From Natronococcus amylolyticus DSM 10524 (GTDB lineage: Archaea > Halobacteriota > Halobacteria > Halobacteriales > Natrialbaceae), in the NCBI RefSeq assembly GCF_000337675.1, contig NZ_AOIB01000039.1, forward strand, positions 15,808 to 63,804: a stretch of DNA of 47,997 bases, written 5' to 3'. The stretch's first letter is position 1. Each line of letters opens with the position of its first letter. Below the pieces are notes generated by a model. The model saw nothing but the letters and a program-made list of their open reading frames with translations, searched no databases and had not been told where the DNA came from. Of the stretch, positions 41,274 to 43,569 are shown one piece after another. The translations under genes were made by a program, and so were the position numbers.

Positions 41274-41307
41274 TTCCGTCAGAAGTGAGGGCAGATTTGA
41301 GCCTCGA
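41274..41307. repeat. tRNA-Val-like fragment, left flank (part 1)
   Basis: TTCCGTCAGAAGTG followed by GGGCAGATTTGA matches the sequence flanking and ending the tRNA-Val gene (43483-43514: TTCCGTCAAAAGTG, GGGCAGATTTGA), with a shortened acceptor. Reading continues into an inserted palindromic block. Confidence 0.5.
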
Positions 41308-41400
41308 CGAGACGTGCTCGCTCACGGCGCGAAGCGCCGTTCGCAATCGCGGTCGGCGACCGCGCTCTCGCTGCGCACGACTCGTCTGGTTTGCACTCAT
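41289..41400. repeat. Palindromic repeat element, copy A
   Basis: Starts GGCAGATTTGAGCCTCGACG and ends CGCACGACTCGTCTGGTTTG; the ends are near complements (GACGAG/CTCGTC). A shorter related copy is at 43371-43437. Copy A has extra hairpins inside (CGGCGCgaaGCGCCG at 41323-41340). Confidence 0.5.
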
Positions 41401-41416
41401 CTTCGACTCGCGCTCA

Positions 41417-41430
41417 CTGCCGGCCTCCTC
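41417..41430. repeat. tRNA-Val-like fragment, left flank (part 2)
   Basis: CTGCCGGCCTCCTC is identical to part of the T-arm and anticodon-stem region of the tRNA-Val gene (43515-43528). It lies on the far side of the palindromic block from part 1, as if a tRNA fragment had been split by an insertion. Confidence 0.45.
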
Positions 41431-41501
41431 AGTAGAGTAGCAGGTGGGAAAAGCACTCTCGAGTCTACGCTTAGTCTGCGTCGCAAGTTGGCGATTCGAA
41501 A

Positions 41502-43115
41502 TTAACCCGAGTATGAATAGATTATGGGATTTACTTTTCCGGATTGGTGTGTTTGTACACCAGGTGCAGAGTCCAATTCTTCAGACAAAAGGTATGACCA
41601 CAGACTATCGAACGTATTGTATCTTCCCGTCTTCTCCGGGAATTTCTTTCTAAAGTGCTCTCTGAAATCTCCTCGTTGTGCTTCACCAACTTCCTTCAAA
41701 TAGTTATATGCATATTGAAGTAGTGCCTGTCGCTCTTTCTTTGTCATTTTTTCTCCAGATATATTTGCGTTTTCAACCCATTCTTCTATCTCAATATCCA
41801 GTTCAGATGGGATTTCTTCATCACCGATATAGCGCCAGTATTTGTTGCCACCAGAAGGAGACTCAATATCCTCACACGTATGTAGTGTGTCTCGAATACA
41901 GTATATCCAGAGACCATCATAATTGGTGTAATGTGCAGTATAGTCAGGCAGTGAATCAATAAGATTCTCTTTTGTCACGGTCCCTTCTTCGCGTATACTG
42001 TTATACGCATGCTGGATCATTGCCTGCTGCATCTCTACCGCTTTTCCACTCCCAACAGGCTGGTCATCTAAATTCTTGACCCAGTCGTCAATCTCATCTA
42101 CCATTACCTCTTCTTCCAATTCAGGTGACACATATCTCCAAACACCTTTTGTTCCACCCCCAGTATCATGGATACGCGGCAGTTCTGACAGGTTGTCCCT
42201 CAGATAGTTTTGCCATTGGCGATCAAGATCTTCCGAAGAGAGGCTATTAGACGTTGTTTTTACTACATGGTCCTTGATTTCTTGTCCTTTTGCTTTCTCT
42301 TTACTACGTAGAAAATTGTATGCAGTAAGTATGTATTCTGCACGTTCTTCACGTACTTCTTCTGTTCGTCCAGGTAGATACGTCCCCAGGGTTTCAAGCA
42401 CATCTTCTGGGGCCCTTGGAAGATTCTCGTCTGCAGGGTCGGTACTGAGATTTTGAATTAGATCATCAATAAATGAATCTACTTCCTCTTCAATATCAGA
42501 TGCAAGAGAATTATTCGTTTTCTCTATCAATATTTCTGCCATATCCTTTTTAATACTATTTGCGTTTTCTTCGAGTTTTTTGATCCCCTGACTCCTTGTA
42601 TTCAATTCTTTTTCAAGTTCATAAGATTGGCCCGATTCTATCATCTCTTTCGAAAGAATACGTAGATTTTCCCAATCGGAACCTAAATTACCAATTGTCG
42701 TCTCAAACAATGGTCCTTCCGCGGAACTGGGTGCACCAGTAAGGCTTAAAACATGAAACTGCTTTCCGTTCGTTAGAAGACCCCAGTCTGTTTCGGTTTG
42801 CCGCATATAGCTCCTAAGCTGTTCTCTGTCCTCTTCTGTTAAGCTATGGGCTCCAGATTTAGCTTCAACAATCACATCTGGTTCATCATCGACAAAAAGT
42901 GCATAATCTATCTTGAGATAGGTAGTCCCAGCCCTAACTGAATACTGTGTCCGTACATCATTGAATCGGTCCCATCCCAGAAGATCAAGGAGGGGTTGGA
43001 TGAATTTCATTTCAACATCACTTTCTGATAAATCAGAGAAAGTATCCATGGCCTGTTTTGACCGTTCAATATAGTTAGCTAGGTCTTCGCTCATGACATT
43101 GGTAGCATCATTCAC
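41502..43115 (-). CDS. HsdR-N-like PD-(D/E)XK nuclease protein with three winged-helix-like repeats, possible defence gene
   Basis: 537-residue protein in AT-rich DNA unlike its neighbours, with codons such as AAA, AAT and TTA. Residues 20-155 resemble the N-terminal nuclease domain of type I restriction subunits: E35 (VEMKFIQPLLDLLGW), then D70 (YLKIDYALF) and E84-x-K86 (VIVEAKSG), followed by EEDREQLRSYMRQT and WGLLTNGKQFHVL. A helical middle (155-250) follows. Residues 258-349, 362-450 and 460-537 are three diverged copies of one module: an AYN-x-L/I helix, then a W-x-Y strand (LWIYCIRDTL, LWSYLLSEEL, WQNYLRDNLS) and, in the first two, WRY. No helicase or methylase is present. Defence is inferred; it could also be a mobile-element protein. 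Confidence 0.72.
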   Translation of the reverse strand: MNDATNVMSEDLANYIERSKQAMDTFSDLSESDVEMKFIQPLLDLLGWDRFNDVRTQYSVRAGTTYLKIDYALFVDDEPDVIVEAKSGAHSLTEEDREQLRSYMRQTETDWGLLTNGKQFHVLSLTGAPSSAEGPLFETTIGNLGSDWENLRILSKEMIESGQSYELEKELNTRSQGIKKLEENANSIKKDMAEILIEKTNNSLASDIEEEVDSFIDDLIQNLSTDPADENLPRAPEDVLETLGTYLPGRTEEVREERAEYILTAYNFLRSKEKAKGQEIKDHVVKTTSNSLSSEDLDRQWQNYLRDNLSELPRIHDTGGGTKGVWRYVSPELEEEVMVDEIDDWVKNLDDQPVGSGKAVEMQQAMIQHAYNSIREEGTVTKENLIDSLPDYTAHYTNYDGLWIYCIRDTLHTCEDIESPSGGNKYWRYIGDEEIPSELDIEIEEWVENANISGEKMTKKERQALLQYAYNYLKEVGEAQRGDFREHFRKKFPEKTGRYNTFDSLWSYLLSEELDSAPGVQTHQSGKVNPIIYSYSG

Positions 43116-43136
43116 AGCTTTCCTAATATAGTCTGG

Positions 43137-43143
43137 TATATGG
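43137..43143 (-). promoter_or_regulatory. TATA box of the island gene
   Basis: CATATACC on the minus strand lies about 25 bases before the ATG at 43115. A second A/T patch (ACTATATTA, 43126-43134) is closer. Confidence 0.4.
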
Positions 43144-43173
43144 TGTAGTGTTTCAGTGGTGTAGTGTTTCAGT
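43142..43173. repeat. 16-bp tandem repeat upstream of the island gene
   Basis: GGTGTAGTGTTTCAGT occurs twice in tandem, followed by a degenerate third unit (GTTGCAGTG). It lies immediately upstream of the island gene promoter, so it may be an operator. Confidence 0.55.
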
Positions 43174-43370
43174 GTTGCAGTGACGACGTGATATAGTTCA
43201 CATTTGGAGAGATAGATTTTATCCTGGATTATAAAATGGAATCTAACTAGATGGCACTATTCTTACTACTCCTGAGACCAGACGCACGATCACCACCAAT
43301 CGGCTCAGGAACCCGTCGGAAAAAGCTTAATCAGGATTCCTGGGTGAGGATGCGTTGGAAATAGATTGGA

Positions 43371-43437
43371 GCAGATTTGAACCTCGACGAGACGTGCTCG
43401 CTTCGCTGCGCGCGACTCGTCTGGTTCAAACTGCCGT
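43371..43437. repeat. Palindromic repeat element, copy B
   Basis: The left arm GCAGATTTGAACCTCGACGA and right arm TCGTCTGGTTCAAACTGC are near complements of about 20 bases around a G/C-rich centre. The left arm is almost the same as the 3' end of the tRNA-Val gene (GCAGATTTGAAC). Related to copy A at 41289. Confidence 0.55.
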
Positions 43438-43442
43438 AACAA

Positions 43443-43493
43443 TTTTGACGGAACGAACGACTCGCTTCGCTCGTCGTTGTTGTTCCGTCAAAA
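43443..43493 (-). terminator. Long perfect hairpin 3' of tRNA-Val
   Basis: TTTTGACGGAAC (43443-43454) is exactly complementary to GTTCCGTCAAAA near 43482-43493, with AACGAC/GTCGTT also pairing inside. It lies immediately downstream of the tRNA on its strand, so it may shape the 3' end of the tRNA transcript. It may equally be part of the repeat cluster. Confidence 0.45.
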
Positions 43494-43494
43494 G

Positions 43495-43569
43495 TGGGTT
43501 GGGGCAGATTTGAACTGCCGGCCTCCTCCATGTCAAGGAGGTGTCATAACCAGACTAGACCACCAACCC
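43495..43569 (-). tRNA. tRNA-Val (GAC)
   Basis: 75 bases on the minus strand with 7-bp acceptor stem GGGTTGG/CCAACCC and discriminator A. The anticodon stem CCTCC/GGAGG encloses the loop TTGACAT, giving anticodon GAC (valine). The T arm is GGCAG-TTCAAAT-CTGCC. No CCA end is encoded. It is divergent from the trp operon, and its 3' part is echoed by fragments at 41274-41307, 41417-41430 and 43366-43383. Confidence 0.95.

What the first reader, a model, noticed from the sequence alone, without database searches (positions are those of the whole stretch)
41502..43115. Lone restriction-like nuclease with three copies of a winged-helix-like module
The protein has an HsdR-N-type PD-(D/E)XK domain (E35, D70, E84-x-K86), then three diverged copies (258-349, 362-450, 460-537) of a roughly 85-residue module with conserved AYN helix and LW-x-Y strand. 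It lacks helicase, methylase or specificity partners. The combination could sense foreign or modified DNA with the repeats and cleave through the nuclease domain. I do not recognise this arrangement as a named defence family.
Basis: partly seen in the sequence, partly recalled or inferred. Interest (0 to 1): 0.8.

Follow-up and report, generated by a model that had tools for sequence, protein, structure and literature searches.

The report
Lone tRNA-linked nuclease with triple winged-helix
A salt-loving archaeon carries, in a small foreign DNA insert beside a tRNA gene, a stand-alone DNA-cutting enzyme joined to three copies of a previously unnamed winged-helix module; it is probably a self-contained defence enzyme that moves between genomes as a one-gene cassette.

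Summary
Residues 8-162 match HSDR_N (E 9e-11) and fold like the nuclease domains of DrdV and HsdR (Z about 12.9), with D70, E84-x-K86 and Q99xxxY103 kept; the conserved first Glu is E31, not E35. Three repeats (251-331, 356-432, 455-537) are homologous (0/2000 shuffles) and predicted as winged helices. The module has no Pfam or PADLOC match, occurs in about half of 392 genomes of the order, mostly in wHTH or RHH-like proteins of likely regulatory function, and was not found convincingly outside the order. Nuclease plus three modules was found in only three genomes, one copy broken by a transposase. No HsdS or Dam-family methylase exists in these genomes. New here: the gene fills a 2.2-kb low-GC single-gene island at tRNA-Val, bounded by tRNA-3'-end copies; one relative lacks it, another has a different gene there. 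Of 103 related lone nucleases, 25 lie within 1.5 kb of a tRNA, 23 facing its 3' end; four islands have far-side tRNA repeats (up to 36/36 nt) and hold one gene, no integrase. Best reading: a single-protein restriction enzyme working like wH-fusion type IV nucleases such as DpnI, carried as a tRNA-site cassette. Its target is unknown.

The parts
41502..43115 (-). ORF of the lone nuclease, 537 codons from GTG 43115; likely start ATG 43094 (530 aa)
42630..43094 (-). HSDR_N-type PD-(D/E)XK nuclease domain (GTG numbering 8-162): E31, D70, E84-x-K86, Q99xxxY103
   Evidence: Pfam 8.6e-11; conservation; fold Z 12.9 DrdV, 12.8 HsdR
42444..42629 (-). helical linker (residues about 163-224)
   Evidence: helices 156-217 in M8 numbering of the model
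42123..42365 (-). winged-helix module A (residues 251-331)
   Evidence: module HMM 82 bits; model
41820..42050 (-). winged-helix module B (residues 356-432)
   Evidence: module HMM 94 bits; separate model pLDDT 85, cullin-WHB-like Z 8.7
41505..41753 (-). winged-helix module C (residues 455-537)
   Evidence: module HMM 78 bits; LmrR/PadR-like Z 7.8
43494..43569 (-). tRNA-Val(GAC); its 3' end faces the island
   Evidence: ARAGORN
43366..43382 (-). near-side copy of the tRNA-Val T-arm/3' end (16/17)
41416..41430 (-). far-side copy of part of the tRNA-Val 3' half (15/15)
41289..41300 (-). far-side copy of the adjoining tRNA-Val T-arm part (12/12), split from the above by a palindromic segment
41291..41391 (.). 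palindromic segment, also present near the tRNA (43371-43426) and 94% alike at the same site in a congener
41289..43493 (.). 2.2-kb single-gene island, GC 0.44 against flanks of 0.66 and 0.70
   Evidence: missing from congener G205

Best explanation
A stand-alone, probably ATP-independent DNA endonuclease. The N-terminal HsdR/DrdV-type PD-(D/E)XK domain cuts; three C-terminal winged helices bind DNA and set where it cuts, by sequence or by base modification that the host lacks. It works as a one-protein restriction factor (type IV-like or unprotected type II-like) and spreads as a single-gene cassette at tRNA 3' ends, moved by integrases supplied elsewhere or by recombination between flanks. 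SHOWN: domain make-up, intact motif, winged-helix fold (predicted), orphan status, horizontal tRNA-site island with cargo turnover. INFERRED: DNA binding by the modules, cleavage, modification dependence, antiviral role, route of movement.
For: Nuclease domain and motif; fold like DrdV and HsdR; winged-helix modules that otherwise sit in wHTH or RHH-like proteins; no HsdS, HsdM or Dam in the genome and no partner gene beside the other two members; low-GC island, absent in G205 and replaced by an Exo_endo_phos-like gene in G203; 25 of 103 related lone nucleases within 1.5 kb of a tRNA, 23 facing its 3' end, at least 9 changes of this trait forced on the tree, 0 of 32 module-only control loci; far-side tRNA repeats of 15/15, 18/18, 36/36 and 33/36 nt around single-gene islands. 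Precedents: wH fusion nucleases without a methylase (PMC11037411) and the gonococcal drg nuclease in a low-GC insert (PMC4269198).
Against: No activity, binding or phage data. Only three members are known and one is disrupted by a transposase. The best structural match of the module, cullin WHB, is not a DNA reader, so DNA binding is not secured. No gene of a known defence system was found beside it.
Confidence: 0.55

Rival explanations
1. Homing-type selfish element: the nuclease cuts the unoccupied tRNA 3'-end site, and repair copies the one-gene cassette into it; the winged helices recognise the tRNA-flank junction.
For: Family members recur at 13 different tRNA genes, 23 of 25 at the 3' side, with no integrase found near; islands hold only the nuclease gene.
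Against: Duplicated tRNA 3' ends are the mark of integrase-type recombination, not homing; 78 of 103 relatives are not near a tRNA; close relatives sit at different tRNAs, and some beside integrase genes away from tRNAs (G183, G078).
Confidence: 0.1
2. Passenger of tRNA-integrated elements whose integrase and other genes were lost; the nuclease is decaying or has no present function.
For: Short islands with worn repeats; the Halococcus thailandensis copy is broken by a transposase.
Against: In the window the frame and all motif residues are intact; gene-only islands recur many times, which suggests that the gene itself is kept.
Confidence: 0.15
3. Host-type regulator or DNA-processing factor: the winged helices target chromosomal sites as in the wHTH proteins, and the nuclease domain nicks or only binds DNA.
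For: Module otherwise found in likely regulators, including one wHTH protein with the same three modules (L044).
Against: Patchy, horizontally acquired, tRNA-island gene; conserved catalytic motif.
Confidence: 0.1
4. Degraded type I or type IIG restriction subunit that lost helicase or methylase.
For: Nuclease domain nearest to HsdR and DrdV.
Against: Same architecture over the full length in a second genome (43% identity) with three modules in place of a motor; about 100 relatives of about 360-440 aa also lack it; no HsdS in any of five genomes checked.
Confidence: 0.05

Closest known systems
DpnI / FcyTI / Psp4BI (PD-(D/E)XK-wH, N6mA-dependent; PMC4117772, PMC11037411)
   Same: N-terminal PD-(D/E)XK domain, C-terminal winged helix, no cognate methylase; host here has no Dam-type methylase
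   Different: HSDR_N-type nuclease, three modules of a family with no sequence match to DpnI, about twice as long; methylation dependence untested
HhiV4I/HHPV4I and haloarchaeal PUA-wH-HNH or wH-HNH nucleases (PMC10101028, PMC11037411)
   Same: Haloarchaeal wH-nuclease fusions acting alone
   Different: HNH rather than HSDR_N nuclease; one wH placed before the nuclease
FokI (type IIS; from own knowledge)
   Same: Nuclease joined to three winged-helix-like subdomains for recognition
   Different: Order reversed, different nuclease subfamily, FokI has a cognate methylase
DrdV / HsdR (type IIG and type I)
   Same: Same nuclease-domain fold (Z 12.9 and 12.8) and motif
   Different: No methylase, target-recognition domain, helicase or specificity subunit
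Neisserial drg in the leuS/dam locus (PMC4269198) and minimal mobile elements
   Same: Lone Gm6ATC nuclease in a low-GC insert between conserved genes; slot with variable cargo
   Different: Here at a tRNA gene, flanked by tRNA-derived repeats

Membership tests
Type I restriction HsdR | HSDR_N nuclease domain | tested here: met
   Pfam 8.6e-11; Z 12.8 to 3h1t
Type I restriction HsdR | helicase motor in the same chain | tested here: not met
   No helicase family in 537 aa; the rest of the chain is three winged helices
Type I restriction HsdR | HsdS and HsdM partners | tested here: not met
   No PF01420 or PF02384 match in G000
Type IIG (DrdV-like) | methylase and target-recognition domains in the chain | tested here: not met
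   No methylase domain by Pfam; only the nuclease part aligns
wH-fusion modification-dependent nucleases (DpnI-like, type IV) | PD-(D/E)XK domain plus winged helix | tested here: met
   (fold by prediction)
wH-fusion modification-dependent nucleases (DpnI-like, type IV) | no cognate methylase beside the gene | tested here: met
   two PF01555 methylases lie on other contigs
wH-fusion modification-dependent nucleases (DpnI-like, type IV) | sequence homology of nuclease and wH to DpnI | tested here: not met
   No DpnI family in Pfam scans of the protein or of 32 modules; no significant solved-structure sequence hit
wH-fusion modification-dependent nucleases (DpnI-like, type IV) | cleavage depends on base modification | not testable with these tools
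   needs a cleavage assay
tRNA-integrated element | tRNA 3' end duplicated at the far end | tested here: met
   worn and split in the window, 36/36 in L187
tRNA-integrated element | own integrase | tested here: not met
   No PF00589 match listed on the window's contig; one gene only in the island
Minimal mobile element | same slot, different or no cargo in relatives, no mobility gene | tested here: met
   G000 nuclease, G203 Exo_endo_phos-like gene, G205 empty

The most novel reading that the evidence does not exclude
Lone HSDR_N nucleases of haloarchaea define a class of minimal, integrase-less, single-gene mobile elements of tRNA 3' ends, in which the nuclease itself drives or secures the insertion (for instance by cutting unoccupied tRNA sites), with exchangeable C-terminal readers such as the triple winged-helix module.
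Probability: 0.1. Interest if true: 0.85.

Novelty: new variant of a known kind. Interest (0 to 1): 0.5.

Why it matters
It adds a reader domain, absent from Pfam and apparently confined to haloarchaea, to the known set of lone nuclease-winged-helix enzymes, and it shows that lone HsdR-like nucleases in haloarchaea repeatedly travel as one-gene islands at tRNA 3' ends. Both are directly testable: what the three modules read, and what moves a one-gene island that has no integrase.

Tried and rejected
Viral contigs: two scans with this protein found no relative; phage records show only the nuclease domain. Plasmid records: no copy covers 80% of the protein. The 13-base motif TAATCAGGATTCC beside the tRNA-proximal edge was tested as a general element end: it occurs only in G000 and G203, at this one site, so it is local shared flank. 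Near-side tRNA copies (+77 to +130) also occur at tRNA-Val loci without the nuclease, so they are not taken as evidence for this island. DpnI and forkhead kinship of the module: no significant sequence hit (forkhead E about 0.6); DpnI did not appear among the structural rows shown, which proves nothing. Three alignments were too divergent for pattern scans.

Full report
WHAT IS THERE. The gene is on the minus strand, 43115 to 41502, in a haloarchaeal genome (G000, contig C39; relatives are named as Halobacteriales). The first codon of the ORF is GTG; relatives begin around M8, so ATG 43094 is the likelier start. Pfam finds HSDR_N_2 (8.6e-11) and HSDR_N (3.8e-9) and nothing else above cut-off. 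AlphaFold gives mean pLDDT 80, pTM 0.44 (flexible arrangement); the N-terminal part aligns with DrdV (Z 12.9, 136 residues, 3.0 A), an HsdR fragment (12.8), BpuSI (11.5) and EcoR124I HsdR (8.8).

THE REPEATS. Pairwise local scores of the three copies are 60-98 against shuffled means of 24-28, 0 of 2000 shuffles as high. Each copy is predicted as helix-strand-helix-helix-strand-strand, a winged helix; module B alone with 32 aligned modules gives pLDDT 85 and aligns with cullin winged-helix B domains (Z 8.7, 2.0 A over 71 residues), PadR and others. Middling Z values only support the fold, not a function. The module has no significant match in Pfam, PADLOC or PDB sequences. It occurs in 199 of 392 sampled genomes of the order at E 0.001 or better; outside the order only one hit at E 0.006 was seen. 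Its usual hosts are proteins with an N-terminal wHTH and one or two copies, or an RHH-like segment with one copy (RHH-like is my reading of the sequence), and one wHTH protein with three copies (L044). So the module is probably a DNA-binding or regulatory domain of haloarchaea that was joined to a nuclease, not a defence domain as such.

HOW RARE THE FUSION IS. Nuclease plus three modules was found in three genomes: this one, Halobacteriales archaeon QH_8_64_26 (43% identity over the full length) and Halococcus thailandensis JCM 13552, where an IS4-like transposase gene (my reading of the sequence) splits it. Neighbours in both are housekeeping-like genes. No HsdS or Dam-family methylase exists in any of five genomes checked; the window's genome also has no HsdM and two PF01555 methylases on other contigs.

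THE ISLAND. GC falls from 0.66-0.70 to 0.41 around the gene. The gene lies beside the 3' end of tRNA-Val(GAC) (43494-43569). Copies of the tRNA 3' half lie on the far side of the gene (41416-41430, 15/15, and 41289-41300, 12/12), split by a palindromic segment, and on the near side (43366-43382). In congener G205 the flanking genes and tRNA-Val are joined by about 0.5 kb without the gene; in congener G203 the same slot, with flanking segments 94% and 85% alike, holds a different low-GC gene with weak Exo_endo_phos similarity. This is an integration slot with cargo turnover.

A FAMILY HABIT. I collected 103 distinct loci of the nuclease family (mostly about 360-440 aa, with other C-termini). 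25 have a tRNA within 1.5 kb; about 4-5 are expected from 45 tRNAs in 3.1 Mb (figures of Haloquadratum, PMC3119063). In 23 of 25 the tRNA 3' end faces the gene (binomial P about 1e-5 for 50:50); the two exceptions, L168 and L170, are near-identical neighbours on the tree. Thirteen different tRNA genes are used, and the tree forces at least nine changes of the trait, so the placement arose many times. Of 32 module-only loci none has a tRNA near. Parts of the last 36 nt of the tRNA recur on the far side of the gene in four loci: window 15/15, L129 18/18, L187 36/36, L191 33/36; shuffled controls averaged 8.5 and never exceeded a score of 12. These islands of 1.4-2.2 kb hold one convincing gene. 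No PF00589 integrase is near the tRNA-linked ones checked, though two relatives away from tRNAs have one within about 1 kb.

MECHANISM. The best-supported account is a one-protein restriction enzyme: nuclease core plus three winged-helix readers, with self-protection either by reading a modification that the host lacks or by a target that is rare or masked. Absence of Dam-type methylase would permit Gm6ATC reading, but this is only compatible, not evidence. The closest workings known are DpnI and other wH-fusion nucleases, which lack cognate methylases (PMC11037411), including haloarchaeal and haloviral ones (PMC10101028), and the gonococcal drg nuclease in a low-GC insert (PMC4269198). It is not a member of the DpnI family by sequence, not a type I HsdR and not type IIG. 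The tRNA cassette habit is separate evidence that the gene is horizontally spread; how a one-gene island moves is open (integrase in trans, or flank recombination as in minimal mobile elements; the homing rival is less likely because of the duplicated tRNA ends).

LIMITS. All function is inferred. Structures are predictions. The count of fusions rests on samples and capped lists. tRNA statistics use related loci, although the tree shows many independent placements. The window's own far-side repeat is worn and split; the clean cases are in relatives.

Noticed in passing
L187:2063-3706: Cleanest one-gene tRNA island: tRNA-Gly(CCC) with an exact 36/36 copy of its 3' end 1.6 kb away, holding only an HSDR_N nuclease.
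   Followed up: partly
L113:5600-5900, L115:801-2450: Tandem copies of the tRNA-Val 3' end with hairpin-rich spacers of about 130 bp downstream of tRNA-Val, also in genomes without the nuclease; origin unexplained.
   Followed up: partly
   Followed up: no
L044:7402-8721: A wHTH protein with the same three modules in tandem, 38% identical to the modules of the nuclease; possible source of the fusion.
   Followed up: partly
L041:7081-8163 and L220, L226, L227, L229, L232: Conserved haloarchaeal family with an RHH-like N-terminus, coiled region and one C-terminal module; function unknown.
   Followed up: no
L046:8553-9848: IS4-like transposase gene inserted in the Halococcus thailandensis copy of the nuclease.
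   Followed up: yes
L168 and L170: Two near-identical nucleases lie on the 5' side of tRNA-Ser(TGA), the only exceptions to the 3' side rule; a 23-nt copy of the tRNA 3' end lies beyond the tRNA.
   Followed up: partly
window 43327-43341: TTAATCAGGATTCCT at the tRNA-proximal island edge is shared (13 bases exact) with the different cargo of G203 and found in no other of 61 genomes searched.
   Followed up: yes
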